NCBI RefSeq assembly: GCF_028368935.1
Contig: NZ_JAQNDK010000004.1
Coordinates: forward strand, 558,001-622,000
DNA from: Sorangium aterium
GTDB taxonomy: Bacteria > Myxococcota_A > Polyangia > Polyangiales > Polyangiaceae
Length of the DNA: 64,000 nt
Direction: 5' to 3'
Below are positions 30,276 to 51,026 of the stretch, piece after piece (positions within the stretch are counted from its first letter, which is position 1; every line of letters begins with the position of its first letter). The translations under genes and the position numbers were made by a program. Below the pieces are notes generated by a model. It made no database searches. It was not told the DNA's origin and was given only the letters and a program-made list of their open reading frames with translations.

Positions 30276-30650
30276 ACCACCTCGCGAGTCCAGGGGACTC
30301 CGGGCGACCAGAGTCCGCGCTTGCCTGCCGCACATGCGGCCGGCCAGGTCGTCACCCGGGACACCCCACCGCGGTTCGGAGGGTTGTCGGCCAGCGAGCC
30401 GGGGCTACGCGCTGGCGCTCATGACCTGCCGAACCATTACCTCGATTGCTTCGTTGTGGCAAGTACAGACTCGACATTGCACCGGCCCGCTCGGCTGCGA
30501 ACGCCGGTACGGTGGTTGCATTGTGAATCTCCGGGGCAATGCGATGCCGCACATCGTGGCTCCTGGACAGGGCCCTCACGGCCGACTCTGCCGCACGAAG
30601 CGGGGTGTGACCGTGGGCCCTGCGTCCTCCAGCGCATCCCGAGAGAACCC
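30276..30650. other. Divergent intergenic region
   Basis: 375 bases between the divergent aminotransferase and gamma-glutamyltransferase genes. The part around 30430-30550 is less G+C-rich and likely holds the promoter of the latter. No riboswitch, operator or gene could be supported. Confidence 0.35.
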
Positions 30651-32657: not shown

Positions 32658-33128
32658 TCAGGGCGCCGGGGGCCACGCGCCGATCTGCGCCAATGCGGTG
32701 AACCAGTCCTCGAGGTGCCACGTCCGCGCGATCCGGCCCTCCCGCAGCGCATGAAAATCGTGGCACGGGACGCTGATCTCCCTCCCGCTCGGCGCCACCC
32801 CCAAGAACGTGTCTCGATGGGTCCCCGTGAGGACAGACCGGACCGCAGCCCGGCCTGGCTCCTGGAGGATGTCCAGCACCTCGAGCTTCACGTCGGGAAA
32901 GGCCTTGAAGAACGCGCGCAGGATGGGCTTGACGCTCTCCGGGCCCACCCCTTGACCGGGGGGCAGCGGGATGTCCTCCCAGTCCTGGGTCACCGCCTCG
33001 TCGATGAGCTCCGGCCGCCGCTCGCTGAAGGCGCGGTAGAACGTCAGCAAAGCCGCGCGCTCCGCCTGGACCGCGGTCGCCGCGGCCGCGGCAGGGGCGG
33101 TCGGAATGACGGCATCGATGTTCGCCAT
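32658..33128 (-). CDS. SnoaL-like (NTF2-fold) protein
   Basis: A 156-residue protein. After about 25 Ala-rich residues comes an NTF2-like cone domain of the SnoaL/ester-cyclase kind: ALLTFYRAFSERRPELIDEAVTQDWEDI, FFKAFPDVKLEVLDI, VRSVLTGTHRDTFLGVAPSGREI and HDFHALREGRIARTWHLEDWF. The pattern with GTH(R) and the closing His-Leu-Glu-Asp is characteristic. SnoaL cyclises aromatic polyketides, but most bacterial homologues have unknown substrates. ATG 33128 is preceded by AGAAGAGG. It resembles the protein at 49347. It is divergent from the ketosynthase gene at 33711. Confidence 0.85.
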   Translation of the reverse strand: MANIDAVIPTAPAAAAATAVQAERAALLTFYRAFSERRPELIDEAVTQDWEDIPLPPGQGVGPESVKPILRAFFKAFPDVKLEVLDILQEPGRAAVRSVLTGTHRDTFLGVAPSGREISVPCHDFHALREGRIARTWHLEDWFTALAQIGAWPPAP

Positions 33129-33710: not shown

Positions 33711-34703
33711 ATGGCGGCTCAGATCATCGATGTTGTCAGCTTCATGCCAGAGCGCCGGGTCGTGAACGAGCCGCCCGAGGGCAGCTCCGAGGACGCGCTG
33801 GCGGACAACGCCTTCTTCAGCGGGGTTCACGAGCGGAGGTTCGCCTCGCCGGATTACCTCTCCGAGGACCTCGGCGTGCGCGCCGTCGAGCGGCTCCTCG
33901 AGAGGACAGGGATCCTCCCCGAGACGATCGATCTCCTCGTGTGCTCCTGCATCTTCTCCGACACGTTCTGGCCAGGCATCGGCCCTGCGATCCAGCACCG
34001 CGTCGGCGCCCGGCAGGCGACGATCCTCAACATCGACACGAGCTGCTCCTCGTACCTGTCGGGGCTCAATACGGCCCGCGCGTTCGTCGAGTCGGGCCAG
34101 TACAAGCGCGTCGTCGTGGTGACGGTGACGAACTTCATCTCTCGCCTGCCCGAGTTCCAGAAGTCCCGCCGGTCGTCCGTGCTCGGCGACGGCGCCTCGG
34201 CCACGCTCGTGATGCCGGGCGAGGCGTCGATCATCGCCCGCTACGAGCGCTCCCACGGCGAGCACTACGGCCTGTTCCGCTTCGAGCCCGACGTCGTCGA
34301 CGGGGTGTTCAAGAACTACTGGGAGCGCGGCTGCGGCCCGATCACCGTCAATTTCTCCAGGGACATGGTCGAGGCGATCCGCACGAACGCGCTGCAGCTC
34401 GTGCCTGACGCGGTGGGGCGGTGCCTCGCGGAGGCCCGGCTGTCGCCGAGCGACGTCAACCTCCTCATCACCCACCAGCCGAACGAGACGTTCCTCAAGG
34501 AGTGGCGCGCCCGGATAGGGATCCTCCCTCCGCGCACGCACGACACCCTGTCGCGTTATGGCAACCTGTTCCAGGGCTCGATTCCGGTCACGCTCGCGGA
34601 CGCGCTGGAGAGCGGCCGCATTCGACGCGGCGATATCGTCGCGCTCGGGACATTCTCGAACGGCGGAGACTTCGTGAGCTCGATGGTGCTGCGCTGGCAG
34701 TAG
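33711..34703 (+). CDS. FabH-like beta-ketoacyl synthase III
   Basis: A 330-residue thiolase-fold ketosynthase of the FabH type. The catalytic triad is complete: Cys112 in IDTSCSSYLSG, His255 in ITHQPNE and Asn285 in YGNLFQGSIP. The Asn motif differs from housekeeping FabH (YGNTSAASIP), and the window around Cys112 is TSCSS, which suggests a specialised acyl substrate. Enzymes of this type condense acyl-CoA with malonyl-ACP or transfer acyl groups to hydroxyl or amino groups. The ThDP enzyme gene follows 35 bases downstream, so the two probably work in the same pathway. Confidence 0.92.
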   Translation: MAAQIIDVVSFMPERRVVNEPPEGSSEDALADNAFFSGVHERRFASPDYLSEDLGVRAVERLLERTGILPETIDLLVCSCIFSDTFWPGIGPAIQHRVGARQATILNIDTSCSSYLSGLNTARAFVESGQYKRVVVVTVTNFISRLPEFQKSRRSSVLGDGASATLVMPGEASIIARYERSHGEHYGLFRFEPDVVDGVFKNYWERGCGPITVNFSRDMVEAIRTNALQLVPDAVGRCLAEARLSPSDVNLLITHQPNETFLKEWRARIGILPPRTHDTLSRYGNLFQGSIPVTLADALESGRIRRGDIVALGTFSNGGDFVSSMVLRWQ

Positions 34704-34738
34704 TCGCCCGAGGTCCACGCACGGAAGGTACACGCTGT

Positions 34739-36496
34739 ATGAAGTTGGCCGACGCGTTGGTCGAGATGCTGAGGGATTGGGACGTTCAATACGTCTTCGG
34801 AGTGAGCGGCGCGAACATCGAGCACCTGCACGACGCCATTCATCGGCACGGGCAAGGGAAGCTGGTCTCCGTCCTCGCGAGGACAGAGATGGGCGCCGCG
34901 TTCATGGCGGACTGCAGGGCGAGGGTCCACAGGCGCCTCTCGGTCTGCTGCGCGACGTCGGGCGGCGGGATGCTCAACCTGGCTGTCGGGATCGCCGAGT
35001 CCTACGCCGAGGCGGTCCCCGTGCTCGCGATCGTCGGCCAGCCCCCGACGTCGCTCGAGGGGCGGGGGGCGTTCCAGGACTCGTCGGGCATCGGCAACTG
35101 CGTCGATGCCGTCCTGCTCTGGCGCTCGATCTCGAAGTACGTCGGAAAGATCAGGAGCCCACACGACTTCTGGCCGATGCTGCGCGAAGCGGTCGTGGCG
35201 GCGACGTCGGGCCGGCAGGGCCCGGCCGTGCTCCTCGTGCCCCGGGACCTCTTCGATCAGGAGGTCAGCCCGCCCCCGGTCGACTGGCCCTCTGATCTCC
35301 AGAGCTTCTGCCGATCGCGGCCGGTCGGGATCGGCGAGGTGATGCCGCTGCTCGAGGCCATCCGCAGCGCGCGCCGCCCGTTGCTCCTCGTCGGCCAGGG
35401 GGTGCGCCGCTCCGACGACGCCGGCGCGGTCGAGGCGTTCGCGCGCGCGGTCGGTCTCCCGGTGGTGACCACGATGTCGGCCCGCGCCGACTTTCCGAAC
35501 GACGACCCGCTGTACCTGGGGACCGTCGGCGCGGCGGGACACCCGTCGGCGCACGCGTACCTGCGCGACGAGGCGGATCTCGTCATCGCCGCGGGCGCGA
35601 CGCTCGACGTCATGACGCGCGCCGCGGTCGAGAAGAGCTTCAAGGACAAGCGCTTCGTCGTCATCGACGTCGATCCCGAGGCGATCCACCGCGTCCTTCA
35701 GCCCGAGATCACCCTGTATGCGGACGTCGGCCGCGCCTTCCGCGCGCTGCTCGATCTCCTGGAGAGGCGCCCGATGTCACCGCTCCCTCCGATCGAAGGG
35801 TACACGCGGCGCTGCTACGAGCCCCGCCTCGCGCCGGCCATCCCGGGCGACGACCCGGGCGCCGCGGGGCCCGATACGCTCCTGCAGAGCGAGGCCCTGG
35901 CCATCCTGGCGGAGTTCCTGCCGGCGAAGGGCCACGTCGTGCTCGACGCCGGCAACTGCGCCGCCGCGGCCATGCACTACCTCCCCGTCCCGGAGGGCTC
36001 GACATCGACGATCGCGCTCGGGATGGGGGGAATGGGCTACTCGATCCCCGGCGCCATCGGCGCGCAGCTCGGGTCGGAGCCCGGGACGCGGACGACGGTC
36101 ATCTGCGGCGACGGATCGTTCCTGATGCTCGGCCTGGAGGTGCACACGGCCGTCGATCTCGGCCTGCCCATCCTGTTCGTCGTGTTCAACAACGCGATGC
36201 ACGGGATGTGCGTCACGCGTCAACAGCTCCTCTTCGAGTCCCGGATCGAGGCCGTTCGTTATCCGGAGGTCGACTTCGCGGCCCTCGCGGGCGGGCTCGC
36301 CCCGGGCGACCGGCTCTGGGTGGGCTCCGCGTCCACGCCGCAGGAGCTGCGCGAGCGCCTGAGCGATTATCGCGACAACCACCGCGACGTGCCTGGCGTG
36401 CTCGATCTGCGGCTCTTGCGCGAGGAGATCCCGCCTTTCGCGCCGTTCCTCGGAGCGGACGCGCCGACGATACCGACGTCGGCGTTCGCGGCATGA
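34739..36496 (+). CDS. ThDP-dependent enzyme of the acetolactate synthase family
   Basis: A 585-residue thiamine diphosphate enzyme with the three-domain layout of acetolactate synthase, benzoylformate decarboxylase and relatives. Catalytic Glu50 is in ARTEMGAAF, and the N-terminal domain has the pattern GVSGANIEHLHDAI. The central domain (RRPLLLVGQGVRRS) follows. The ThDP-binding C-terminal domain has GDGSFLMLGLEVHTA and FNNAMHGM. A regulatory subunit gene is absent, which argues against branched-chain amino acid synthesis. Such enzymes form alpha-hydroxyketones (acyloins) from a 2-oxo acid and a second carbonyl or acyl-CoA. The preceding ketosynthase gene is 35 bases away; a ribosome site (GGAAGG) precedes ATG 34739. 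Confidence 0.9.
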   Translation: MKLADALVEMLRDWDVQYVFGVSGANIEHLHDAIHRHGQGKLVSVLARTEMGAAFMADCRARVHRRLSVCCATSGGGMLNLAVGIAESYAEAVPVLAIVGQPPTSLEGRGAFQDSSGIGNCVDAVLLWRSISKYVGKIRSPHDFWPMLREAVVAATSGRQGPAVLLVPRDLFDQEVSPPPVDWPSDLQSFCRSRPVGIGEVMPLLEAIRSARRPLLLVGQGVRRSDDAGAVEAFARAVGLPVVTTMSARADFPNDDPLYLGTVGAAGHPSAHAYLRDEADLVIAAGATLDVMTRAAVEKSFKDKRFVVIDVDPEAIHRVLQPEITLYADVGRAFRALLDLLERRPMSPLPPIEGYTRRCYEPRLAPAIPGDDPGAAGPDTLLQSEALAILAEFLPAKGHVVLDAGNCAAAAMHYLPVPEGSTSTIALGMGGMGYSIPGAIGAQLGSEPGTRTTVICGDGSFLMLGLEVHTAVDLGLPILFVVFNNAMHGMCVTRQQLLFESRIEAVRYPEVDFAALAGGLAPGDRLWVGSASTPQELRERLSDYRDNHRDVPGVLDLRLLREEIPPFAPFLGADAPTIPTSAFAA

Positions 36497-36694
36497 CAGC
36501 GCGCGGAGGCCTCGTCGCGCGGAGATCTCGAGCGAGCTCGCGTTTCCTGGAGAGTCTCGAAAGGCCTTGTTGCGCCCAGTGGCTTCGATGAATCGAGGCG
36601 TGTTGATTTTGAATTATGTCCATTGTTGTTGTTCGAGGTCGAGTCATCATTGGTTGATTGCCGGCGCTGGAGTCGGTGACATGAGGAGGCTTTG

Positions 36695-37483
36695 ATGTAT
36701 CTGCGCGGTTCCGTGAGTTCCTTGCTTCTCGCTAGCGTCTTCACCGCCGGTTGCGCCGTGGAGGCCGCCGACCCCGAGATCACCGCTGAAGCACAGCAGG
36801 AGATCCGGGGGTTCAGCCTCAGCTTGACGAACGTCGTCGAGACGATCGGCCTGGATCTCGTCCCGACCGACGAGGCCGATGCCCTGGTCCCGGAGGAGTT
36901 CGTGCTCGCCGGTGAGGGGGGGCCCGTCACCCCGATCGTCGTGAGGACGTCGCACGCCGACGGCATCTCGGTGAACGGCGGCACGCCGACGCCGGGCTCG
37001 GTCGTCCAGGTTGGCCTCGCCGTCGTTCCGCCCGACGGGACCGGGGACGTCAACAGCTACACGCTCTGGTATTACACCGACCACGCGCTGCTCGCGTACA
37101 AGCTGCTTCAAGCCGGCTTCCTGGTTCAGTACGTCCCGTCGCTCGACTACGATCTCGCGTTCTCGGGCGGCGTCGGCGACCTCCACGTGAGCGTGCCGTT
37201 CCCTGGCTACCCTCGCCTGGTCGTCGACGGGACGGTCGCGACGCCCAGCGGGCCCCCGGCGCCGTTCGTGGCCAACTGGTGGGTGTCCACCTGGCAAGGC
37301 CCCGTCAAGCAGTCGACGGTGATCTCGAACCTCTTCTTCGGCGGCGCGGACGCCACCCTCGAGACCCGCGCGCAGAACCCGCTCGGGACCCTGATCGGCG
37401 GCTCGACGGCGGAGTTCTCGGTGCTCGACAGCTACAACGAGTTCCCGACCGCCGACGTGACCGTGGGGCTGTCGCCGTTCTAG
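36695..37483 (+). CDS. Lipoprotein of unknown function
   Basis: A 262-residue predicted lipoprotein. The signal ends in VFTAGC (lipobox TAGC, Cys20). The mature part alternates hydrophobic and polar residues with many Val, Thr and aromatic residues (SYTLWYYTDHALLAYKLLQ, PFVANWWVSTWQG), consistent with a beta-sandwich, perhaps binding a hydrophobic ligand. No family was recognised. GAGGAGG at 36683-36689 gives a strong ribosome site for ATG 36695. It lies about 200 bases after the ThDP gene and 96 before the START-fold gene, all in one direction, so it is treated as part of the same locus. Confidence 0.75.
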   Translation: MYLRGSVSSLLLASVFTAGCAVEAADPEITAEAQQEIRGFSLSLTNVVETIGLDLVPTDEADALVPEEFVLAGEGGPVTPIVVRTSHADGISVNGGTPTPGSVVQVGLAVVPPDGTGDVNSYTLWYYTDHALLAYKLLQAGFLVQYVPSLDYDLAFSGGVGDLHVSVPFPGYPRLVVDGTVATPSGPPAPFVANWWVSTWQGPVKQSTVISNLFFGGADATLETRAQNPLGTLIGGSTAEFSVLDSYNEFPTADVTVGLSPF

Positions 37484-37579
37484 CGCGGCGTCCAGCCGAT
37501 GAGATGCGACGCGAGCCGGCGCCGCGCAGGCCAGCGTACGACGTGATGTGATTGTGATGTCGAATTGAAGGAGAGCACG

Positions 37580-38251
37580 ATGACCGCACATGACGACAGA
37601 GGGCCGTGGAGCCGATCCGGGCTCGTGAAGAACGGGGTCTCCAGCAGGGAGATCCCCGGCCTGTACGTCTCCGAGGATCACTCCATCGAGGAGTGCGTGA
37701 AGCACCTGGAGGGGATCACCAAGCCGACGTACTCGCACGAGGAGATCTTCGGCCAGTATTGCCACCTCGGCGAGTACATCCACGTCCCGGTCGAGGTGGC
37801 GTACGAGTACGCGGCGAACGTCTACAGCCTGGAGGAGTGGACGTTCAGCCTGCGGAGCCTCCACCACATCGGCGGCGGCCTCTATAAGGGGAAGGAGTTC
37901 CTCGCGAAGGACACGTCGATCTACGTTCGCGCCGAGGCCTACCCGGACAGCCGCGTCGTCGATTACCCTTGCGCCTGGGACCAGGGCGACGAGCTGTGGA
38001 TGCGGTACCACTTCCGCTTCGTCGACGCGAGGCCCACCATTCGCAAGCCGGGCACCATCGTGCTCTGGACCAACGTGAAACACCCGTACTACGACAGGGC
38101 CACGGGGGAGCTTCCCGATTACATCAGCAAGCCCCGCGCGCGGACGGACCGGGCCTGGGTCGGCGATATCTGGCCCCATTTCGACGCGATCCACAAGATC
38201 GAGATCGCCAACTTCAAGGCCATCCTGGAGCACCGGTACTCCAAGCTGTAG
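37580..38251 (+). CDS. SRPBCC/START-fold protein (probable ligand-binding or cyclase-like)
   Basis: A 223-residue soluble protein. From about residue 50 it follows the SRPBCC pattern: a first strand and helix (GEYIHVPVEVAYEYAANVYS, LEEW), a beta-sheet series (SIYVRAEAYPDSRVVDYPCA, ELWMRYHFRF, GTIVLWTNVKH) and a long closing helix (IHKIEIANFKAILEHRY). The fold encloses a deep hydrophobic pocket; in biosynthetic loci such proteins are polyketide cyclases or carry hydrophobic ligands. The first 50 residues, including GLYVSEDHSIEECVKHLEG, are not assigned. AAGGAG at 37568-37573 is well placed for ATG 37580. The fold call is by pattern only. Confidence 0.7.
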   Translation: MTAHDDRGPWSRSGLVKNGVSSREIPGLYVSEDHSIEECVKHLEGITKPTYSHEEIFGQYCHLGEYIHVPVEVAYEYAANVYSLEEWTFSLRSLHHIGGGLYKGKEFLAKDTSIYVRAEAYPDSRVVDYPCAWDQGDELWMRYHFRFVDARPTIRKPGTIVLWTNVKHPYYDRATGELPDYISKPRARTDRAWVGDIWPHFDAIHKIEIANFKAILEHRYSKL

Positions 38252-38424
38252 CGCCGCCCGCTTTTATTCCCACCCCGATGGCGAGGCCGGCCCCATCCCC
38301 GTGCGCTCCTCTGCTCGCGCTTCTCTGTTCGCGTTTCTTGGGCGGCCTCGCGACGGCCGTCGCGCGCGCCACCGGCGGTGGGCCGGCGGCGGGCCGGCGG
38401 CCCTCACACCCTGATAGGAGATCT

Positions 38425-41400
38425 GTGAACTTCATGCATGAAAGGCGCGGTGTCTGGGCCGCGCGGCTGGCTGCGGCCGCCAGCCTGCTCCTCCCGACCT
38501 CGGCCTTCGCCACCGGCTCCGGCGTCCTGACAGGCACGGTCCTCGATTCGTCGACGAGGCAGCCAGCCGCCGATGTCGTCGTGACCGTGACCTCCCCAGC
38601 GCTCCAGGGAGAGCAGCTGGTCGTCACCGACCCTTCCGGCCAGTTCCGGATCCCGAACCTGCCGCCGGGCACGTACACCCTCCGGCTCGACAAGGACGCA
38701 TACAGGCCGTACAGCCGCGGCGGCATCGAGCTGCGCGTCGACAGCACCATCCGGGTGAACAGCGAGCTGCTGCCCGAGGCGCTGAAGGCCGAGGAGATCG
38801 TTGTCGTCGGCAGCGCGCCTATCGTGGATGTCGGGTCGAGCGCGACCGGCGTGAACGTCGGCTCGGAGTTCGCGAGCCGCATCCCGCTCATCCCCACGGG
38901 CGCGAAGGGCGCCGCGACCCGCTCCTTCGAGGCGCTCGCCGACGTGGCGCCCGGCGCGAGCGCCGACCGTTACGGCGTGTCGATCAGCGGGACGACGTCG
39001 CCGGAGAACCAGTACGTGATCGACGGCCTGTCGGTGAACAACCCGGCCTTCGGCGTCATCGGGACGCCGCTGTCCGTGGAGTTCATCAAGGAGGTCAAGG
39101 TGATCACCGGCGGCTACCTGCCGGAGTACGGCCGCGCCACCGGCGGCTACCTCGACGCGGTGACGAAGTCGGGCTCGAACGAGTTTCACGGCGCGGTGTT
39201 CTTCAGCATCACGCCGGGCCTCTTCGAGGCGTCGCAGACGGGGGTGCAGAGCGAGGCGAGCACGATCACGACCGACACCCGGCTTTCGTCGCTCCGGGAC
39301 GTCGGCGTCGAGATCGGCGGCCCGATTTTGAAGGACAGGCTCTGGTTCTTCGCCGGGGTCTCTCCCTCGGCCGCGAGCTACCGCCTCGAGCGCGAGCTGC
39401 GCTTTGGCAGGTCCGACCCGATCCCCGGCACTCAGCGGGTCTACTACGCCACCCAGCAGAGCGTCCAGTACCTCGGCAAGCTCACGTGGCTGATCGACCC
39501 GGACAACACCGTCTCGCTGTCGGTCTACGGCTCGCCCACGACGTCGGGGGGAGACGGCGACTTCGGCATCAGCCCGAAGGACGGCACCGTGGAGCTGAAC
39601 AACAGCTCGAGCAACAACGTCATCAACGGCAGCTTCGGCGCCCTCGCGCACAGGTACGTGTCGAGCGCGACGGACGGCGCGCTGAAGTGGTCCTCGGCGT
39701 TCCAGAACAAGACGTACCTGCTCGACGTCACGCTCGGCGTCCACCACGAGGAGAACGCGATCCGCGCCGCCGACGGCACGAGGATCGGGAGCGGGAAGGG
39801 GCTCTCCGACATCGCGCAGGTCCACTGGCAAAGGAGCGATCCCGGGTTCCACTCCATCAACGATTTCGAGCCGTCCGAGGCGACGCGCGAATGCGACCCC
39901 GCGGGCACGCAGGCCGCCGAGCGGTGCCCCGTCGCGACGTACTTCAGCGGCGGGCCGGGGGCGCTCAGCGAGACGACGCTCGACAGGTACCAGGGCAAGG
40001 CCGTGTTCACGGGCCTGTTCACCGCCCTCGGCCACCACATCGTCAAGGCGGGCGCCGACCTCGAGCTGATGCGTTATGCGTCGTCCCGCGGCCACTCGGG
40101 GCGCAACGTCTTCGCCGAGACGACCGACGGGGCCGCGTTCACCGGCTTCCGCCGGCTCGGCTTCATCGCCAACCCCGACGAGGGCGTGCCGCTCGACAAG
40201 TTCGAGACGGTGTCGAAATCGACCACGATCGGCGGCTTCGTGCAGGACAGCTGGAGCATCCTCGACAAGGTCACGCTGAATGCGGGGGTCCGTTACGACG
40301 CGCAGCTGCTGTATGGAGGCGACGACAAGCTGGCGATAGCCCTCCCCAACCAGTGGTCGCCGCGCGTCGGCGTGATCTACGATTTCACGCAGGCCGGCCG
40401 CTCCAAGCTGTTCGTGAACTACGCGCGGTTCTACGAGAGCGTGCCGCTCAACATCATCGACCGCGCGTTCCCCGGCGAACGGCAGGTCTTCACGCTTCAC
40501 GCCGCGGCGGTGTGCGATCCCCGGGACCGCGCGCAGCAGCGCGACGCGTGCGATCGGAACGAGAACCTGATCCCGACGGCCGCCCCGTACAGCCCCAACC
40601 AGAAGTGGCGTGTCATCGGGGGCGACGGCGGCATCGATCCGGACCTCGAGCCGCAATCGACGGACGAGATCGTGCTCGGCGGCGAGGTCGAGATCTATCC
40701 CCGGCTGCGCGTGGGCGCGCAGTACACGAAGCGCTACCAGAACCAGGTCATCGAGGACATCAGCCGGGACGAGGCGAGGACGTACCTCATCGGCAACCCA
40801 GGCTACGGCGTCGCCAAGGATTTCCCGAAGCCGACGCGCGACTACGATGCGGTCACCGTCCATGCCGAGAAGGCCTTCGCCGACGCGTGGCTCGCGCAGG
40901 CGAGCTACACGATCTCCTACCTGCGCGGCAACTGGGCCGGGCTCTTCCGCCCCGAGACCGGGCAGCTCGATCCGAACGTCAACTCGGACTTCGATCTGGT
41001 GTCGCTCCTGCCGAACCGCACGGGGCCGCTCCCCGGGGATCGCAGGCACCAGTTCAAGGTCTTCGGCGCCAAGGACTTCACGGTTCATCACCGCGTGATC
41101 GTCAGCGTGGGCGGGACGTACCGGTCCGCCTCCGGCGGGCCGACGAGCCACCTCGGCTCGCACCCGCTCTATGGCCCCGATCAGGTCTACATCCTCGAGC
41201 GCGGGAGCGGCGAGCGCCTCCCCTGGGCGCATTCCGTCGATGCCCACGTCGGCGTGGGCGTGCAGCTCGCCAAGGAGAGCACGCTGACCGTCACGGTCGA
41301 TTCGTTCAACATCTTCAATTTCCAGGCGGCGACTGCCGTGGACCAGCGGTACACGGTGGCCTCCGTCCTTCCGATCGTGAACGGGACGAAGGGCGATCTC

Positions 41401-41523
41401 GGGCAGCTCAAGAACGTCGATGGCTCGACGTTCAACCCGATCAACAAGAACCCGAACTTCGGAAAGCCTGTTGCATATCAGGCGCCGCGCACGTTCAGGA
41501 TCGGCGCCAAGGTGACCTTCTAG
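38425..41523 (+). CDS. Oar-like TonB-dependent outer membrane receptor
   Basis: A roughly 1030-residue outer membrane receptor. The signal peptide (AARLAAAASLLLPTSAFA) is followed by a carboxypeptidase-regulatory-like beta-sandwich (about 35-115: VLTGTVLDSSTRQPAADVVV, LPPGTYTLRL). The plug comes next (YVIDGLSVNNPAFG, FIKEVKVITGGYLPEYGRATGG), then a large barrel with repeated aromatic girdle strands, ending FRIGAKVTF. This layout is that of the myxobacterial Oar protein, a TonB-energised importer or export-linked receptor. Start options are GTG 38425 (4 bases after GGAG) and ATG 38434. The lipoprotein gene follows 27 bases after the stop and is very probably co-transcribed. Confidence 0.93.
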   Translation: MNFMHERRGVWAARLAAAASLLLPTSAFATGSGVLTGTVLDSSTRQPAADVVVTVTSPALQGEQLVVTDPSGQFRIPNLPPGTYTLRLDKDAYRPYSRGGIELRVDSTIRVNSELLPEALKAEEIVVVGSAPIVDVGSSATGVNVGSEFASRIPLIPTGAKGAATRSFEALADVAPGASADRYGVSISGTTSPENQYVIDGLSVNNPAFGVIGTPLSVEFIKEVKVITGGYLPEYGRATGGYLDAVTKSGSNEFHGAVFFSITPGLFEASQTGVQSEASTITTDTRLSSLRDVGVEIGGPILKDRLWFFAGVSPSAASYRLERELRFGRSDPIPGTQRVYYATQQSVQYLGKLTWLIDPDNTVSLSVYGSPTTSGGDGDFGISPKDGTVELNNSSSNNVINGSFGALAHRYVSSATDGALKWSSAFQNKTYLLDVTLGVHHEENAIRAADGTRIGSGKGLSDIAQVHWQRSDPGFHSINDFEPSEATRECDPAGTQAAERCPVATYFSGGPGALSETTLDRYQGKAVFTGLFTALGHHIVKAGADLELMRYASSRGHSGRNVFAETTDGAAFTGFRRLGFIANPDEGVPLDKFETVSKSTTIGGFVQDSWSILDKVTLNAGVRYDAQLLYGGDDKLAIALPNQWSPRVGVIYDFTQAGRSKLFVNYARFYESVPLNIIDRAFPGERQVFTLHAAAVCDPRDRAQQRDACDRNENLIPTAAPYSPNQKWRVIGGDGGIDPDLEPQSTDEIVLGGEVEIYPRLRVGAQYTKRYQNQVIEDISRDEARTYLIGNPGYGVAKDFPKPTRDYDAVTVHAEKAFADAWLAQASYTISYLRGNWAGLFRPETGQLDPNVNSDFDLVSLLPNRTGPLPGDRRHQFKVFGAKDFTVHHRVIVSVGGTYRSASGGPTSHLGSHPLYGPDQVYILERGSGERLPWAHSVDAHVGVGVQLAKESTLTVTVDSFNIFNFQAATAVDQRYTVASVLPIVNGTKGDLGQLKNVDGSTFNPINKNPNFGKPVAYQAPRTFRIGAKVTF

Positions 41524-41550
41524 GGCGATGGCCCCGAGAGACACACGACC

Positions 41551-42351
41551 ATGAGACGAATCCTCGGAACATCTCTCGCGCTCCTCGCGCTCCTCGCGCT
41601 CCTCACGCTCTCCGCGTCCTGCGAGCAGCGGCGCGTCACCTGCACCGCGGCCCACGGCGGCTTCGCCGCGAAGTACACGCTGAAGCCCGGCTCGAAGCGG
41701 GGCGAGGGCGCGTGCGACACGCTGAAGGGGGAGATCATCGGCATCGAGAAGTACAACCCCCGGCAGGCCGGGAACCCGCAGCGCCCTGATCCGACGAGGG
41801 CCCACCTCGCGGTCCGGGCCTCGGGGATCGCCTTTCCCGCCTTCGCGGCCCAGGGCGCGCAGGTGGAGCTCGGCCCGACAGCGCTCGACGCGCTCGGAGA
41901 CTTCGCCTCCGTCGATCCGGACGGCAGCGACGTCTGCGCGGTCCCCTCGTTCACGGAGGCCACGCTGAGCATCCCGGCGTACGAGGAGCCCCCGCCTCCC
42001 GACGCGCCGGAGGGCACGCCGCCCACGCAGCACCCGGCCGTCGATATCAGCTATGCATGGAGCAATTTCCGCATCTACGTGACGGCCGCCTACCCGGGCA
42101 CGCAGATCGTCGGAGAGCTGACGTACACGCAGGACGGCTGCTCTGCGTCCTACAGCGTCGTGGGCCTCTATCCCGCGGTGGAGTGCGCGCCCGGCGGCGT
42201 GCCGGATCCGAGCCTCTGCGATCCGCACCCCGACCTGGCGAACGGCCGCGCGTTCGGCTCCGGGATCAACCCGGACTTCGCCGATCGCGTGACCTGCGAC
42301 GCCGAGACCGGCCTCTGCGTGCTCACGTCACTCCCGGAGGAGCTGCGATAA
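41551..42351 (+). CDS. Lipoprotein encoded with the TonB receptor
   Basis: A 266-residue lipoprotein: LLALLALLTLSASC is the signal with lipobox SASC. The mature chain contains about nine cysteines (CEQRRVTCTAAHGG, GACDTLKGE, DVCAVP, DGCSASY, VECAPG, SLCDP, VTCDAETGLC), enough for several disulfides, and two Pro-rich linkers. This gene type is regularly seen next to Oar-like receptors in myxobacteria, so a partner role at the outer membrane is reasonable, but the sequence itself was not recognised. Convergent with the O-methyltransferase gene; two inverted-repeat structures lie between them. Confidence 0.8.
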   Translation: MRRILGTSLALLALLALLTLSASCEQRRVTCTAAHGGFAAKYTLKPGSKRGEGACDTLKGEIIGIEKYNPRQAGNPQRPDPTRAHLAVRASGIAFPAFAAQGAQVELGPTALDALGDFASVDPDGSDVCAVPSFTEATLSIPAYEEPPPPDAPEGTPPTQHPAVDISYAWSNFRIYVTAAYPGTQIVGELTYTQDGCSASYSVVGLYPAVECAPGGVPDPSLCDPHPDLANGRAFGSGINPDFADRVTCDAETGLCVLTSLPEELR

Positions 42352-42447
42352 CGCCGCTTGCACCATGGTCTCGGCGACGCGAGCGGCCAGTTCGGCGTGT
42401 CACAGATCCATCCAGGGATCTGTCTCGCGAACCAAGCGAGATGTTGA

Positions 42448-42534
42448 CGCAAAGACGCCAAGGGCGCAAAGACGCAAAAATACAAATAATCTGCTCTTTC
42501 TCGCGCCTTTGCGTCTTTGCGTCTTTGCGTTGAA
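42448..42534. repeat. CGCAAAGA-type heptad repeats forming a large imperfect hairpin
   Basis: The left part (42448-42480) repeats units of the form ACGCAAAG and the right part (42503-42534) repeats the complementary form CTTTGCGT three times. Together they can form an imperfect hairpin of about 28 base pairs around an A/T-rich loop. The low G+C and regular units contrast with the surrounding DNA. Repeats of this GACGCAAAG kind are known between genes in various bacteria. It lies between convergent genes, so termination is one possible role. Confidence 0.8.
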
Positions 42535-42583
42535 ATCTCTCTCCGGATCCCTGGCCGGCGGAGCTCGCGGAGGGCGGAGCGCA

Positions 42584-42614
42584 GCGCCCCGCTGGACTCG
42601 CTCCAGCGGGGCGC
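42584..42614. terminator. Strong hairpin at the end of the methyltransferase gene
   Basis: GCGCCCCGCTGGA (42584-42596), loop of five bases, then the exact complement (42602-42614). The hairpin ends 5 bases from the last codon of the minus-strand methyltransferase gene. There is no T run, but position and strength suggest a terminator. Confidence 0.65.
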
Positions 42615-42619
42615 GCTCT

Positions 42620-43630
42620 TCACTTCACGCCGACGACGAACGAATCCGAGCCGATGAGCTTCTCCGCGCGGACCTCGCGGAAGCCCTGCTCGCGAAACCA
42701 TCCAGCGCAATCGGCGCTCGTGTAGTCGAATCCCTCGGGCGTCTCGAGGAGGATGGTGAGGCTCATCATGAACCCGGCCACGTTCTCGCGGCGCTCGTCG
42801 TCGATCATCGCATCATAGACGATGAGCACGCCCCCCTCGGGGAGCGCGTCGTACGCCTTCTTGATGAAGCCCCGTTTGTCCGCGAGCTTCCACCCGTGGA
42901 GGATGTGACCCATGGTGATCACGTCCACCTTGGGGATCGAGTCTTTGAAGAGGTCGAACACCTGGAAGCGCAGCCGATCCGCGACCCCGTGCTCCCGGAC
43001 ATAGTCCTCGAAGACCGGCTGCACGGGCGACAGATCGAGCCCGATGCCGGTCAGTTTCGGGTGGGCCAGCGCGACCTGGACAGGCAAGCCGCCCTGGGCC
43101 GTGCCGACGTCGGCGAACGTCTTGTAGCGACCCCACGGGAACTTCGCCGCGAGCGCCCGCGCCGACGGCAGGCTGAGCCCCGTCATCGCCTGGGTGAACT
43201 CACGATATTTCTCGGGGGTCTTGGAGAGCCACGTGAAGATGTCCTCGCGCGCCCCGATCTCGTTCTGCGGCTCGCCCGTGCGCAGCGCCTCGGTGAGCGA
43301 GCCCCAGATCCCGTAGAGCCGCGCGTTCGACATCTCCAGCATTCCGCCGATGTACGACTTCTTGGTCTTGTCCAGGAAGAGGTCCGCCTCTCGTGTGTTC
43401 GAGTACCGGCCGTCCTCGCGCTGCAGGACGCGCAGCGCCACCAGCGCGTCGAAGAAATCGCGCGCCGCGCGGGGGTGGATGCCGATCCGCTCGCGCAGCG
43501 TCTGCCAATCGAGCGGCTCTTTCGCGAGCGCCGTGAACACGCCGAGCTCGACGGCGCTGAGCAGCGTCTTCGATTCGGCGTAAGCCATTCCCAGTCGTAC
43601 AATCGCGTTGTGATCGAACTCTTGCGTCAT
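42620..43630 (-). CDS. Class II O-methyltransferase (acetylserotonin-OMT-like)
   Basis: A 336-residue SAM-dependent small-molecule methyltransferase. The N-terminal winged-helix dimerisation domain is typical (AYAESKTLLSAVELGVFTAL, RERIGIHPRAARDFFDALVA). The Rossmann domain has the SAM loop FADVGTAQGGLPVQVA, GLDLSPV, and the catalytic-base region with His in MGHILHGWKLADK (the base in this family). These enzymes methylate phenolic or enolic hydroxyls of natural products. The start at 43630 has AGGTGA 7 bases upstream; a GTG at 43639 has no site. It faces the receptor/lipoprotein operon, so a link with the nearby ketosynthase/ThDP genes is possible but not shown by co-transcription. Confidence 0.9.
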   Translation of the reverse strand: MTQEFDHNAIVRLGMAYAESKTLLSAVELGVFTALAKEPLDWQTLRERIGIHPRAARDFFDALVALRVLQREDGRYSNTREADLFLDKTKKSYIGGMLEMSNARLYGIWGSLTEALRTGEPQNEIGAREDIFTWLSKTPEKYREFTQAMTGLSLPSARALAAKFPWGRYKTFADVGTAQGGLPVQVALAHPKLTGIGLDLSPVQPVFEDYVREHGVADRLRFQVFDLFKDSIPKVDVITMGHILHGWKLADKRGFIKKAYDALPEGGVLIVYDAMIDDERRENVAGFMMSLTILLETPEGFDYTSADCAGWFREQGFREVRAEKLIGSDSFVVGVK

Positions 43631-43836
43631 ATGGATCACCTGTGTTCGTGCTTCGGGGGCACACCTATGTATTGCATATAAGAATCACAGGCGCTCTCGA
43701 AAAGTCAGAATCATAGCTGTCATTTGTTCGCGGCACTCGCCCCCTGGGCCCTTGGTTCGCGAGGTGGCGAGCAGACGCGGTCGTGTCTGCGCAGTTCAAC
43801 TGGATTCATGCGAGTCGAATCCATTCTGGAGGCTGT

Positions 43837-45735: not shown

Positions 45736-46614
45736 TCACTGGAACGAGGCGGCGAAGGTGGCGACCGTCGTCTCCGGCTTGCCGAGCTCCTTCCAGGTCG
45801 ACTCCGCCTGGAACGGCTCCGGCGCGTTGTTGATCGCGTCGGAGATGTGCCAGACGTAGTTGAACGTCGGTGAGAACAGCCCGAGCACCTTGAAGATCCC
45901 GAGCGGCGCCGCCCCGACGGAGAGCTTCTCCTTCGTGTAGTGCTTGGCGAACTGGTCCGCCGCCTCCTTGATGGTGAGCGGCTCGGGCCCCTGCACCACG
46001 TACTCTCGCGACGCGTCGCCGGGGAGGGCGAGGGCGCGCGCGACCTGCTTGCCGTAGTCGCGCGCCGAGATCCAGTACGCCTTCTCGCGCGGGCTGCCGG
46101 CGAGGTTGATCCGGCTGCCCTGGCGGCTCCGGTAGGGGATCGACTCGATGAAGTTCGACGGGAAGAAGACCGTGCTCGGGATCCCGCTCTCCTTCAGGAT
46201 CGAGAGCGCCTCCCGCTTCATGTCGAAGACCCACCAGCGGAAGCCGTCGTATCGGTGCAGGAGCGAAGACAGGTAGGCGATCCGCTTGATGCCCGCCTCG
46301 CGCGCGGCGGCGACGATGTTCTTCATGCCCTCCGACTCGACGCGCCACGCGTTCGCGGATGCGGTGATCGGCACCGCCAGGCTCACATAGACGATGTCGT
46401 GCCCGCGGAAGGCCGCCGTCAATGCCTTCACGTCGCTGACGTCGCCCGCGACGAGCGCGACGCCCGCCGGCAGCCGCTTGCTCGCGCGGGTCGCCTCGGG
46501 TTCGCGGACGAGGGCGGTCACGGCGAAATTGGCGGCGACGAGCTCCTGGGTCACGGGGGCGCCGAGCATGCCGGTGCTCCCAATCACGACGATGCGAGGA
46601 GAAGCGCTGCTCAT
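45736..46614 (-). CDS. NmrA-like NAD(P)-binding reductase (module copy 1)
   Basis: A 292-residue atypical short-chain dehydrogenase/NmrA-like protein. The dinucleotide loop is IVVIGSTGMLGAPV (GxxGxxG), followed by ALVREPEA and AGDVSDVKAL. The active-site region differs from classic SDRs (YLSSLLHRYDGF with no clear YxxxK), as usual in the NmrA/quinone-reductase-2 group. Such proteins reduce quinones or sense the NADP redox state. It is divergent from the AraC regulator at 46873, an arrangement repeated at 50006-51959, so this regulator most likely controls it. Start 46614 has AGGAGAG upstream. Confidence 0.88.
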   Translation of the reverse strand: MSSASPRIVVIGSTGMLGAPVTQELVAANFAVTALVREPEATRASKRLPAGVALVAGDVSDVKALTAAFRGHDIVYVSLAVPITASANAWRVESEGMKNIVAAAREAGIKRIAYLSSLLHRYDGFRWWVFDMKREALSILKESGIPSTVFFPSNFIESIPYRSRQGSRINLAGSPREKAYWISARDYGKQVARALALPGDASREYVVQGPEPLTIKEAADQFAKHYTKEKLSVGAAPLGIFKVLGLFSPTFNYVWHISDAINNAPEPFQAESTWKELGKPETTVATFAASFQ

Positions 46615-46710
46615 GAAGATCTCTCCTGAGGTCTCGGGGGTACAGGGGTACCCATGAAAGGTCGTCGCGGCGCGGGGCGTGCGGCGTTGACTGCACGCTG
46701 CGCCAGATCC

Positions 46711-46780
46711 GCTCCGGCCCGCCAGCGGGGGCCGGAGCGCCGGATATGCACCGATCTGTAGCGGCCATGCGCTGGCGCAT
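46711..46780. promoter_or_regulatory. Inverted repeats in the first NmrA-AraC promoter region
   Basis: GCTCCGGCCC (46711-46720) and its complement (46729-46738) form a 10-base repeat with an 8-base spacer. A second palindrome, ATGCGCTGGCGCAT, lies at 46767-46780. Both are in the 258-base gap between the divergent genes and are candidate regulator sites. Confidence 0.5.
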
Positions 46781-46872
46781 CCATGCGACTTTGGCTCGTT
46801 CCCTTTCGAGATCGTCCACGGTGGCGTCGGATTGATGGACCGTCTCGGGTCCTCTATCCTGGCGCGGAGAGC

Positions 46873-47904
46873 ATGGACCTCCTCAGCGAAATCGTCGGCG
46901 AGCTCCGCCTCGAGAGCGTGTCGTACTGGCGGCTGGAGCTCACGGCGCCCTGGGCGCTCCGCTTCCCGGCCGGCGGGCGGGGCATCCACATCGTCACGCG
47001 CGGGAGCTGCTGGCTCGAGGTCGATGGAGGGCGGGCGCCCGCCGCCGTCGCGAGCGGCGATCTCGTCGTGATGCCGAGCGGCCGCGGGCACGTGCTCCGC
47101 GACGCGCCCAGGCCGCGCAAGGCGAGCCCCATCGAGGAGCTCGTCCGGGGCGCGTCGCCGGGGCGCGCGATCGAGCACGGCGGGGCCGGCCTGCCGACCA
47201 CGATCGTGTGCGGGCAGTTCCGCTTCGGCACCCTCGGGCACCCCGCGCTCGAGGCGCTGCCGCCCGTGCTCCACCTGCGCGGCGACGAGCGGATCGGCCC
47301 CTTCATCCAGGCGCACACGCAGTGCATCGCCGCCGAGGTCAGCGCGCCGGCCGAGGGCGCGGCGATCGTGACGGCGCGCCTCTCGGACGTGCTGCTCGTG
47401 CAGGCGCTGCGCGCGTACCTCCGCGACGTGCCCGCCGACGAGCGCGGATGGCTGCGCGGCCTCGCCGATCCGCAGATCGGGCGCGCGCTCGCGCGGATGC
47501 ACCGGAGCCCGGAGCTCGACTGGTCGGTGCCCGCGCTGGCGCAGGAGGCCGGCATGTCGCGGGCGGCCTTCTCCGCGCGCTTCTCCGAGCAGATGGGCGT
47601 GTCGCCGGGCAAATACCTCGCGGACTGGCGCATGTACCGCGCGAAGGTCCTCTTGCGGTCAGGGTCGGCCCTGGTGGCGGAGGTGGCCGCGGAGGTCGGC
47701 TATCGCTCGGAGGCCGCGTTCTCGTTCGCCTTCAAGCGGCTCGTGGGCTCGTCGCCGTCGGCCTACCGGGACGACCATCGAGCCGCCGATGTTGCAACCG
47801 CAACACGCGAACAGCAGCCGCTGCTGCGCCCTCAGCAGTCGGCCCTCGACGGCGGCGCCCTCTCTCGCCGTTCTGGCATGCGGCTGAAGCGGCGCCTCCC
47901 GTGA
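46873..47904 (+). CDS. Cupin-AraC transcriptional regulator (module copy 1)
   Basis: A 343-residue AraC-family regulator with an N-terminal cupin-type sensing domain (RGIHIVTRGSCWLEVDGG, SGDLVVMPSGRGHVLRD) and the C-terminal pair of helix-turn-helix motifs at about 215-310 (WSVPALAQEAGMSRAAFSARF, GVSPGKYLADWRM, VAEVAAEVGYRSEAAFSFAF). The start at 46873 begins directly at the cupin domain; the frame is open to 46783. It is divergent from an NmrA-like reductase gene, and the same pair occurs again at 50006-51959. The C-terminal tail is Arg/Gln-rich and probably disordered. The effector is not known. Confidence 0.92.
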   Translation: MDLLSEIVGELRLESVSYWRLELTAPWALRFPAGGRGIHIVTRGSCWLEVDGGRAPAAVASGDLVVMPSGRGHVLRDAPRPRKASPIEELVRGASPGRAIEHGGAGLPTTIVCGQFRFGTLGHPALEALPPVLHLRGDERIGPFIQAHTQCIAAEVSAPAEGAAIVTARLSDVLLVQALRAYLRDVPADERGWLRGLADPQIGRALARMHRSPELDWSVPALAQEAGMSRAAFSARFSEQMGVSPGKYLADWRMYRAKVLLRSGSALVAEVAAEVGYRSEAAFSFAFKRLVGSSPSAYRDDHRAADVATATREQQPLLRPQQSALDGGALSRRSGMRLKRRLP

Positions 47905-50005: not shown

Positions 50006-50884
50006 TCACGCCTTCCAGGCGTCCTTGTGGTCCTGAGCGTACTGCGCCAGGGTGCGCGGGGGCTGGCCGGTCAAGGTGGTCACGCCCGCGCTGACCTGCG
50101 CCGCGGCGCCCTGCCTCACGAACCCGAACAGCCCGGCGAGGAAGTTCGCGTATCCCTCGGAGATCCCCGCTTGCCGCGCTCCCTGGATGAAGGACGCGTC
50201 GTCCGTGTTCACGTACTGGATGGCTCGCCCCGACACCTTGGACAGGGCCGCGGCCGCCTCGGCGTAGGTCAGCGCCTCCGGGCCGGTGAGCGTGAACGCC
50301 TTCTTGTCGAACTTGTCCGATCGCAGCGCCGCGACCGCCGAGGCCGCGATGTCCCTCGCGTCGATGAAGGCCGTCCTGGAGTCCGCCGCCGGGATGGGGA
50401 GCACCCCGGCGTGGACGATCGGCCCGCGCCAGAACGTGTGGAAGTTGTCGAGGAACCAGGTCGGGCGCAGGATCACGTAAGGAGCCCCCGACCGCTCGAG
50501 GAAGAGCTCCACGCGGCGCAGGGGCTGGCTGTCGTCGTACTCCACGCCGGACGCGGTCAGCAGCACGATCTTGCGCTTACCGCCCGAGATCGCCGTCTCC
50601 AGGAACGGGACCAGCAGATCGTATTGAGACAGCTCGCCCGAGGGCGACAGCAAAAATACCCGGTTCACCCCCTCCAGGGCCCCGGCGAAGGTGCTGGAAT
50701 CGCGGTAATCGAAGCGCACCACCTCGACGCCGCGCACCGGCGCCACCTTCGCGGGATCGCGGGACCCCGCGCGCACCTGCTCCCCCGCCTGGGTGAGCTG
50801 CTCGATCAGGAGCTTCCCGACCGTTCCGGTGCTCGTCAGGACCAGGATCTTGTTGCCGCCGCCGCTGCCATTGCTGGTGCCCAT
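50006..50884 (-). CDS. NmrA-like NAD(P)-binding reductase (module copy 2)
   Basis: A 292-residue NmrA/quinone-oxidoreductase-2-like protein, the same length as the copy at 45736. The loop ILVLTSTGTVGKLLIEQL holds the GxxGxxG-type motif with Ser/Thr substitutions (TSTGTVG). Then come AGSRDPAKV, VVRFDYRDSSTF, VFLLSP and VLLTASGVEYDD, with PYVILRPTWFLDNF, a hallmark of the group. The start at 50884 is behind AGGAGGAGAG. The gene is divergent from the AraC regulator at 51027 across 142 bases with palindromes. NADPH-dependent quinone reduction is the usual activity of the nearest known types; the substrate is open. Confidence 0.9.
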   Translation of the reverse strand: MGTSNGSGGGNKILVLTSTGTVGKLLIEQLTQAGEQVRAGSRDPAKVAPVRGVEVVRFDYRDSSTFAGALEGVNRVFLLSPSGELSQYDLLVPFLETAISGGKRKIVLLTASGVEYDDSQPLRRVELFLERSGAPYVILRPTWFLDNFHTFWRGPIVHAGVLPIPAADSRTAFIDARDIAASAVAALRSDKFDKKAFTLTGPEALTYAEAAAALSKVSGRAIQYVNTDDASFIQGARQAGISEGYANFLAGLFGFVRQGAAAQVSAGVTTLTGQPPRTLAQYAQDHKDAWKA

Positions 50885-50965
50885 CTCTCTCTCCTCCTGC
50901 CGGCGTGTGTGGATGTTCGCCACGTCCGGATGCACGGCAGTATTGGGATGCTTGGAGAGATGATC

Positions 50966-51020: not shown

Positions 51021-51026
51021 TGAGCC

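What the first reader, a model, noticed from the sequence alone, without database searches (positions are those of the whole stretch)
33711..43630. Possible undescribed acyloin-type biosynthesis locus with its own outer membrane receptor
A FabH-type ketosynthase with an atypical Asn motif (YGNLFQGSIP) lies 35 bases before a ThDP enzyme of the acetolactate synthase family that has no regulatory subunit. A lipoprotein, a START-fold protein, an Oar-like TonB receptor and a Cys-rich lipoprotein follow in the same direction, and an acetylserotonin-type O-methyltransferase faces them. A ThDP enzyme plus FabH-like enzymes is the core of xenocyloin biosynthesis in Xenorhabdus, where an alpha-hydroxyketone is formed and acylated. 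The receptor and lipoproteins suggest the product is handled at the outer membrane. The grouping as one pathway is inference.
Basis: partly seen in the sequence, partly recalled or inferred. Interest (0 to 1): 0.8.

Follow-up and report, generated by a model that had tools for sequence, protein, structure and literature searches.

The report
Carbazole alkaloid gene cassette, myxobacterium
Three neighbouring genes in this myxobacterial genome very probably build the three-ring core of carbazole alkaloids, a known bacterial pathway, while the outer-membrane receptor next to them is most likely an unrelated neighbour.

Summary
The START-fold protein (37580-38251) is homologous to CqsB2, the carbazole synthase of carquinostatin (6ipv, E 1.2e-79, 55% identity), and keeps its five catalytic residues. 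With the ThDP enzyme (NzsH/CqsB3 type) and the KASIII-like enzyme (NzsJ/CqsB1 type) it forms the carbazole core cassette. Of 34 related loci, 34 hold START with KS and 33 also ThDP; the other starts at a contig end. Both enzymes lie apart from the genome's own FabH and IlvB. So acyloin formation is right for one step, and the xenocyloin parallel is poor. The TonB receptor and Cys-rich lipoprotein are in 0 of 34 cassettes and recur as a pair in 3 of 5 cassette-free congeners: not part of it. A 2020 review already mentions such a cluster in Sorangium cellulosum (PMC7466098). Testable lead: S. cellulosum Soce375 makes sorazolons, one being a dimer of 3-hydroxy-1,2-dimethylcarbazole; my searches found no paper tying them to genes. 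In passing: a sister clade whose ketosynthase has Asn for the catalytic His.

The parts
33711..34703 (+). KASIII-like condensing enzyme, CqsB1/NzsJ type (core)
   Evidence: Cys112-His255-Asn285 present; one clade with 6 other tier-1 KSs, SH-aLRT 100, apart from own FabH; 50.6% identity to the KS of an Embleya cluster whose cyclase is 85.6% identical to CqsB2
34739..36496 (+). ThDP-dependent acyloin synthase, CqsB3/NzsH type (core)
   Evidence: TPP_enzyme N, M and C domains; below the cut-off of each of the 25 NCBIfam models shown; groups with cassette ThDP enzymes, apart from own IlvB
37580..38251 (+). START/Bet v1-fold carbazole synthase (cyclase), CqsB2/NzsI type (core)
   Evidence: phmmer to CqsB2 6ipv E 1.2e-79; E105, Y144, Y172, H206, E209 conserved; predicted model best matches 6ipv
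36695..37483 (+). Lipoprotein between ThDP and START genes; membership doubtful
   Evidence: Same strand, but in 0 of 34 other cassettes; homologues at 34-39% in 3 genomes without START
42620..43639 (-). O-methyltransferase (Methyltransf_2); possible tailoring enzyme, unproven
   Evidence: 49% homologue directly behind the ThDP gene in the Planctomycetaceae cassette L048, 1 of 34 cassettes; at E <= 1e-30 in 6 of 59 genomes including the window's; of the other 5, 4 have no START gene and one has its cassette 2 Mb away
32658..33128 (-). SnoaL-like protein upstream of the KS, divergent; possible accessory, unproven
   Evidence: PF07366; 40% homologue beside START in Saccharothrix L032, whose best match in the window's genome is this gene, E 1.9e-21 against 2.2e-9 for the next; in 1 of 34 cassettes

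Best explanation
The three genes KS (33711-34703), ThDP (34739-36496) and START (37580-38251) are a carbazole alkaloid core cassette. [quoted passage not shown] The KASIII-like enzyme condenses this, with loss of CO2, with an acyl thioester. The START-fold synthase holds the unstable product, closes the ring onto indole C2 and aromatises it to a carbazole. Shown here: homology, catalytic residues, clade membership and cassette conservation. Inferred: substrates, order of steps and product. The acyl unit may be acetyl, because no ACP (motif scan) and no second KASIII was found nearby; that would give a 1,2-dimethylcarbazole, as in the sorazolons. The TonB receptor and its lipoprotein are neighbours, not parts.
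For: START protein matches CqsB2 at E 1.2e-79, with all five residues of the published mechanism (PMC7466098) conserved; the AlphaFold model's best PDB hit is 6ipv. 34 of 34 related loci carry START with KS, 33 of 34 with ThDP. KS tree: the 7 tier-1 rows including the window are one clade (100), and 22 other KSIII rows lie on one side of a branch (98). ThDP tree: 27 cassette rows apart from 14 others including own IlvB (100). One tier-1 member, Embleya L078, has START 85.6% identical to CqsB2, followed by squalene/phytoene synthase-like, KASIII and ACP genes, gene types the review describes for cqs/nzs. Scytonema L031 has a tryptophan dehydrogenase ScyB (NF035922, 621.9 bits, cut-off 600) 18 bases upstream of its ThDP gene, which would supply indole-3-pyruvate.
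Against: No cassette-specific aminotransferase or Trp dehydrogenase among the 20 window ORFs scanned with Pfam; the class-V aminotransferase at 28821-30335 is conserved in congener G004, which has no START gene. No ACP by motif scan (the same motif finds the Embleya ACP) and no second KASIII near. The lipoprotein gene interrupts the trio, which no other cassette shows. CqsB1, CqsB3 and Nzs sequences were not on hand; the Embleya cluster served as proxy. In the KS tree three of the 22 non-cassette rows (L093, L095, L105, long branches) fall nearest the cassette KSs. The START model aligns to 6ipv with TM 0.64 and rmsd 16.6. No expression, enzyme or metabolite data.
Confidence: 0.86

Rival explanations
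1. Same three-enzyme chemistry, but with another aryl- or alkyl-pyruvate instead of indole-3-pyruvate, giving a different fused aromatic.
For: No indole-pyruvate supply gene specific to the cassette among the ORFs scanned; ThDP acyloin synthases vary in donor and acceptor (PMC9822442 passages).
Against: START catalytic residues equal to CqsB2; the nearest cassette, Scytonema, has a tryptophan dehydrogenase directly upstream; KS and ThDP fall in the clade with the Embleya cqs/nzs-like cluster.
Confidence: 0.1
2. Xenocyloin-like pathway: the ThDP enzyme makes an acyloin and the FabH-like enzyme acylates it.
For: Same two enzyme types; ThDP acyloin formation is expected in both (xenocyloin pathway recalled).
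Against: A carbazole cyclase is with the KS in 34 of 34 loci (these loci were found through the cyclase, so the count says that cyclase implies KS, not the reverse); KS keeps Cys-His-Asn. XclA/XclB were not on hand for a tree.
Confidence: 0.04
3. The TonB receptor and lipoproteins belong to the pathway and export or sense the product.
For: Same direction; 173 bases between START and TonB genes.
Against: TonB and both lipoproteins in 0 of 34 other cassettes; TonB plus Cys-rich lipoprotein conserved at 73-74% DNA identity in 3 of 5 congeners, none of the 5 with START; lipoprotein 36695-37483 has homologues in 3 genomes without START. Many of the 34 loci are from Gram-positive bacteria or distant phyla, so absence there is weak; the congener result is the stronger one.
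Confidence: 0.06
4. Furanolide (cyanobacterin-like) pathway: ThDP acyloin synthase plus furanolide synthase.
For: ThDP acyloin step; butenolides are reported from a marine myxobacterium (PMC8777810, search listing only).
Against: A PMC13288894 passage describes CybE with ammonia lyase CybB, CoA ligase CybC and furanolide synthase CybF; no ammonia lyase or CoA ligase was among the 20 window ORFs scanned. CybF itself was not compared.
Confidence: 0.02
5. Housekeeping or catabolic FabH and IlvB paralogues lying together by chance.
For: Family resemblance to FabH and IlvB.
Against: Scores far below the curated cut-offs; true FabH and IlvB are elsewhere in the genome, over cut-off; trees separate them.
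Confidence: 0.01

Closest known systems
Carquinostatin core CqsB1-CqsB2-CqsB3 / neocarazostatin NzsJ-NzsI-NzsH
   Same: Same three enzyme families clustered; cyclase 55% identical to CqsB2 with all five catalytic residues; KS and ThDP in the clade of the Embleya cqs/nzs-like cluster
   Different: Gene order KS-ThDP-lipoprotein-START; no ACP by motif, no second KASIII nearby, no cassette-specific aminotransferase and no prenyltransferase among the 20 window ORFs scanned; product unknown
NzsJ/I/H homologues reported in Sorangium cellulosum and Scytonema tolypothrichoides (PMC7466098, citing its ref. 36, not read)
   Same: Scytonema L031 is the nearest cassette by tree distance (START 71%, KS 72%, ThDP 61%); the S. 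cellulosum locus may be this locus or an orthologue
   Different: The text I saw gives no sequence or coordinates, so identity with this window could not be checked
Chlocarbazomycin cluster chlCz of Streptomyces tubbatahanensis (PMC10100901, passages)
   Same: nzsH, nzsJ and nzsI homologues; proposed to use an acetyl unit and to yield a mono-hydroxyl carbazole
   Different: Has its own aminotransferase, ACP and oxidoreductases in the cluster; sequences not compared here
Sorazolons, carbazole alkaloids of S. cellulosum Soce375 (seen as citations and passages in PMC9811517, PMC9317524, PMC8401837, PMC6017429; original not read)
   Same: 3-hydroxy-1,2-dimethylcarbazole, the unit of sorazolon E2, is what this cassette would give from indole-3-pyruvate, pyruvate and an acetyl unit
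   Different: No gene cluster tied to them in the papers found; whether this strain makes them is unknown
Xenocyloin XclA/XclB
   Same: ThDP acyloin synthase plus FabH-like enzyme (recalled)
   Different: No carbazole cyclase in that pathway (recalled); not compared by sequence

Membership tests
Carbazole core cassette (CqsB1-B3 / NzsJ-I-H) | ThDP enzyme, KASIII-like enzyme and START-fold cyclase encoded together | tested here: met
   Window 33711-38251; trio in 33 of 34 other loci, the other truncated at the contig end
Carbazole core cassette (CqsB1-B3 / NzsJ-I-H) | Cyclase homologous to CqsB2 with Glu105, Tyr144, Tyr172, His206, Glu209 | tested here: met
   phmmer E 1.2e-79; all five residues
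Carbazole core cassette (CqsB1-B3 / NzsJ-I-H) | Bet v1-like fold like CqsB2 | tested here: met
   AlphaFold model pLDDT 80.4, pTM 0.82; best PDB match 6ipv E 1.8e-21, but TM 0.64 and rmsd 16.6
Carbazole core cassette (CqsB1-B3 / NzsJ-I-H) | KS in the CqsB1 clade with Cys-His-Asn | tested here: met
   Clade of 7, SH-aLRT 100, triad present; CqsB1 itself not on hand, Embleya L078 used as proxy
Carbazole core cassette (CqsB1-B3 / NzsJ-I-H) | ThDP enzyme in the NzsH/CqsB3 clade | tested here: met
   27 cassette ThDP enzymes on one side (100); 7 tier-1 rows together (83); NzsH and CqsB3 not on hand, Embleya L078 used as proxy
Carbazole core cassette (CqsB1-B3 / NzsJ-I-H) | Indole-3-pyruvate supply gene in the cluster | tested here: not met
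   None cassette-specific among 20 window ORFs scanned (for the class-V aminotransferase); accessory, may be served from elsewhere in the genome
Carbazole core cassette (CqsB1-B3 / NzsJ-I-H) | Dedicated ACP and second KASIII (CqsB6/CqsB5), used for the hydroxybutyryl side chain | tested here: not met
   No ACP by motif in the window (control positive); no other FabH-family hit near. Accessory; not needed if acetyl-CoA is used
Carbazole core cassette (CqsB1-B3 / NzsJ-I-H) | Forms a carbazole from indole-3-pyruvate, pyruvate and an acyl thioester | not testable with these tools
   Needs enzyme assay
Xenocyloin XclA/XclB | Enzymes clade with XclA and XclB | not tested
Biosynthetic acetolactate synthase IlvB | Score over TIGR00118 cut-off, clusters with IlvB | tested here: not met
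   265.9 bits against cut-off 538.35; own IlvB 751.9; tree
Housekeeping FabH | Score over TIGR00747 cut-off, clusters with FabH | tested here: not met
   139.5 bits against cut-off 292.1; own FabH 401.1; tree

The most novel reading that the evidence does not exclude
The cassette makes the sorazolon skeleton: a CqsB2-type synthase, fed with an acetyl instead of a 3-hydroxybutyryl unit, gives mono-oxygenated 3-hydroxy-1,2-dimethylcarbazole. If so, the mono- versus di-oxygenated branch of bacterial carbazoles, which the 2020 review calls unidentified and a 2023 paper ascribes only by proposal to its own carbazole synthase, is not decided by the five catalytic residues of the cyclase, which are the same here as in CqsB2, but by a reductase or by conditions.
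Probability: 0.35. Interest if true: 0.55.

Novelty: new member of a known kind. Interest (0 to 1): 0.4.

Why it matters
It replaces a vague 'acyloin locus with a receptor' by a specific, testable carbazole pathway in a myxobacterium, and it gives a candidate gene set for the sorazolons. The unit of sorazolon E2 carries one oxygen on ring A; the machinery for that branch was called unidentified in 2020 (PMC7466098) and has since been the subject of a proposal in a Streptomyces cluster (PMC10100901, passages). The comparison also exposes a large sister clade of cassettes in which the ketosynthase lacks the catalytic histidine; I saw no description of it in the passages I read.

Tried and rejected
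Receptor and lipoproteins as pathway parts: rejected. AraC(Cupin_6)/NmrA divergent pair (45736-47904) as a cassette companion: the gene types recur beside the tier-1 cassettes L032 and L033. However, 7 of 11 Cupin_6 regulators of the own genome, the window's two included, have an NmrA-like neighbour, so the pair is generic; rejected as evidence. Foreign origin by composition: GC3 of the three core genes 0.92-0.93, within the range of the neighbours, 0.88-0.95; no signal. Empty site: window 26784-32591 matches a stretch of congener G004 in pieces, but nothing further along the window matched that 19-kb stretch, so no clean empty site was found. Furanolide and xenocyloin readings: see rivals. 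Class-V aminotransferase 28821-30335 as indole-pyruvate supplier: conserved in G004, which has no START gene; not cassette-bound. Glu105 as a marker of the two clades: it fails, because L117, whose KS keeps the His and is 53% identical to the window's, has Asp105.

What the trees held. KS: 29 cassette rows, without L041 (same contig as L053) and L079 (KS matched in two pieces), plus 22 others, namely 19 of the 60 non-cassette matches that I count and 3 own-genome hits. ThDP: 27 cassette rows, without L041, L039, L040 (matches broken in two pieces) and L044 (no ThDP, contig end), plus 14 others, namely 11 of the 52 non-cassette matches that I count and 3 own-genome hits. L117-L120 came later and are in neither tree. 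Both are 'quick' IQ-TREE runs with SH-aLRT support only and carry long-branch warnings.

Mended: the Glu105 statement, the ACP control, the chlocarbazomycin paper, the wording on sorazolon E2 and on what was searched. The interest of the novel case was lowered from 0.6 to 0.55 and overall interest from 0.42 to 0.4 because of the chlocarbazomycin proposal.


Full report
What is there. The window holds, in one direction, a KASIII-like gene (33711-34703), a ThDP enzyme (34739-36496, 35 bases later), a lipoprotein (36695-37483), a START-like protein (37580-38251), an Oar-like TonB receptor (38425-41523) and a Cys-rich lipoprotein (41551-42351), with an O-methyltransferase facing them (42620-43639). 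The KS keeps Cys112, His255 and Asn285; only the residues after Asn (LFQGSIP) are unusual, and they resemble those of its nearest relatives.

Core cassette. Searches of 59 related genomes found the START-like protein in 5 (own included), and in each of these a ThDP and a KASIII relative lie close by. A scan of the collection with named organisms gave 22 loci: Syntrophus MAGs, Scytonema tolypothrichoides, Saccharothrix, Streptomyces, Kitasatospora and others. I added four plasmid stretches (4 of the 6 records hit) and four further genomes of the class (START in 9 of 317 genomes of the class, own included). This makes 34 loci besides the window, 33 distinct, as L041 and L053 are the same contig. 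Of the 34, 34 hold START and KS and 33 hold ThDP; L044 begins inside the cassette. Gene order varies, so the trio is kept together as a set. The loci were found through START, so the count does not say how often the KS or ThDP type occurs without it.

Identity of the START protein. It has no Pfam or NCBIfam hit, but phmmer matches CqsB2 (6ipv, 6ipw) at E 1.2e-79, 55% identity. CqsB2 is the carbazole synthase of carquinostatin. Of the review PMC7466098 I read parts 1-3 of 5 and two further passages. It names Glu105, Tyr144, Tyr172, His206 and Glu209 in the proposed mechanism; all five are present in the window protein. An AlphaFold model (pLDDT 80.4, pTM 0.82) matches 6ipv best (E 1.8e-21, TM 0.64, rmsd 16.6), then PYL receptors and aromatase/cyclases at E about 1e-5. 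The high rmsd is a caveat.

KS and ThDP. The own genome has a true FabH (401 bits, cut-off 292) and a true IlvB (752 bits, cut-off 538) elsewhere; the cassette enzymes score 139.5 and 265.9 on those models. In the KS tree the window and six other loci form one clade (tier 1; SH-aLRT 100) and 22 other cassette KSs form a sister clade (tier 2; 99). Twenty-two non-cassette KSIII including own FabH are on one side of a branch (98), although three of them on long branches lie nearest the cassettes. In the ThDP tree 27 cassette enzymes lie apart from 14 others including own IlvB (100). The tier-1 rows are together (83), and four tier-2 cassettes carry a ThDP enzyme of the tier-1 side (99). Among solved structures the ThDP enzyme is closest to BbmA (9e-64), then acetolactate synthases (about 1e-47); oxalyl-CoA decarboxylases are weaker (about 1e-31).

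A known-type cluster inside tier 1. The Embleya plasmid locus L078 has a START protein 85.6% identical to CqsB2. Behind its KS, START and ThDP genes are squalene/phytoene synthase-like, KASIII and ACP genes, gene types the review describes for cqs/nzs. Its KS and ThDP are 50.6% and 58.6% identical to those of the window. The nearest cassette by tree distance, Scytonema L031 (START 71%, KS 72%, ThDP 61%), has a tryptophan dehydrogenase ScyB over its cut-off directly upstream, which would make indole-3-pyruvate, the donor of NzsH/CqsB3.

Mechanism, inferred from the characterised homologues: the ThDP enzyme joins indole-3-pyruvate and pyruvate; [quoted passage not shown] START closes and aromatises ring A. 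None of this was assayed for the window proteins.

What is not part of it. TonB receptor, Cys-rich lipoprotein and the lipoprotein 36695-37483 are in 0 of 34 other cassettes. TonB plus Cys-rich lipoprotein occur as one unit at 73-74% DNA identity in three of five congeners (G001, G003, G005), and none of the five has the START gene. The lipoprotein at 36695-37483 has homologues in three relatives without START. These genes are most simply neighbours.

Possible accessories. The O-methyltransferase has a 49% homologue directly behind the ThDP gene of the Planctomycetaceae cassette L048; it is in 1 of 34 cassettes. At E <= 1e-30 it is in 6 of 59 genomes, the window's included, and of the other five only G024 has a cassette, 2 Mb away. 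The SnoaL-like gene upstream is the best own-genome match of the SnoaL beside START in Saccharothrix L032, also 1 of 34. Both are open.

Novelty. The machinery is known, and the review already mentions homologues in Sorangium cellulosum and Scytonema tolypothrichoides. The tools name neither the window's genome nor its genus; that it is Sorangium is my inference from kinship to large genomes (five of the six members of the genus held are 11-15 Mb; the 7.3 Mb one is a fragmented assembly). S. cellulosum Soce375 makes sorazolons (passages and citations in PMC8401837, PMC9317524, PMC9811517, PMC6017429, PMC11923644, PMC8024497; the original paper was not read). Sorazolon E2 is made by coupling 3-hydroxy-1,2-dimethylcarbazole. 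From the cassette this unit would need an acetyl group, which fits the absence of an ACP and second KASIII. The review says that carbazomycin enzymes likely accept acetyl-ACP, and PMC10100901 (passages) proposes an acetyl unit and a mono-hydroxyl carbazole for its own cluster, so the idea has a precedent. The 8 papers with 'sorazolon' and the 3 with NzsH/CqsB do not overlap, and one search showed none with both among the 20 of 916 listed. The sorazolon link is a hypothesis.

Against this reading: no cassette-specific indole-pyruvate supplier found, an interrupting lipoprotein gene, no CqsB1/CqsB3 sequences for direct comparison, moderate structural agreement, and no wet evidence.

Noticed in passing
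L034-L054, L079-L081, L118-L120: A large sister clade of cassettes (tier 2; 27 loci, 26 distinct). In all 27 the KS has Asn for the catalytic His (24, L118-L120), and in all 27 the cyclase has Asp for Glu105 (21, 6). Glu105 alone is not diagnostic, as L117 (KS with His) also has Asp. Found in Streptomyces, Kitasatospora, Nocardia, Rhodococcus, Tsukamurella, myxobacteria, a planctomycete and others. Product unknown; lipocarbazoles of Tsukamurella (source recalled) suggest mono-oxygenated carbazoles.
   Followed up: partly
L080 (Tsukamurella tyrosinosolvens plasmid): A tier-2 cassette lies near a TrpB-like gene, which hints at an indole substrate for this clade too.
   Followed up: no
L043, L048, L051, L054 (and L119, L120 by identity): Mixed cassettes: START and KS of tier 2 but a ThDP enzyme of the tier-1 side; L043, L048 and L051 have a gene of one P450-like cluster close behind the ThDP gene (cluster 5; tested with Pfam in L048, and with NCBIfam in L048 and L051).
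   Followed up: partly
L117 (G289): A second cassette of the class close to tier 1 (START 49%, ThDP 55%, KS 53% identity to the window), with KS His kept but Asp105 in the cyclase.
   Followed up: partly
L029, L030 (Syntrophus MAGs): A tier-1 cassette in MAGs of a genus of anaerobes (lifestyle recalled), where the final spontaneous oxidation to an ortho-quinone could not use oxygen.
   Followed up: no
window 42378-42587: A dispersed repeat with many copies, often matching on both strands, in the window's genome and its congeners, lying between the Cys-rich lipoprotein and the O-methyltransferase.
   Followed up: no
window 45736-47904 and around 50006-51959: Two AraC (Cupin_6)/NmrA-like pairs; 7 of 11 Cupin_6 regulators in the genome have an NmrA-like neighbour.
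   Followed up: yes
window 37580-38251 and START genes of L031, L038, L078: The carbazole synthase family has no NCBIfam hit in these four and no Pfam hit in the window protein, so annotation pipelines may miss these cassettes.
   Followed up: partly
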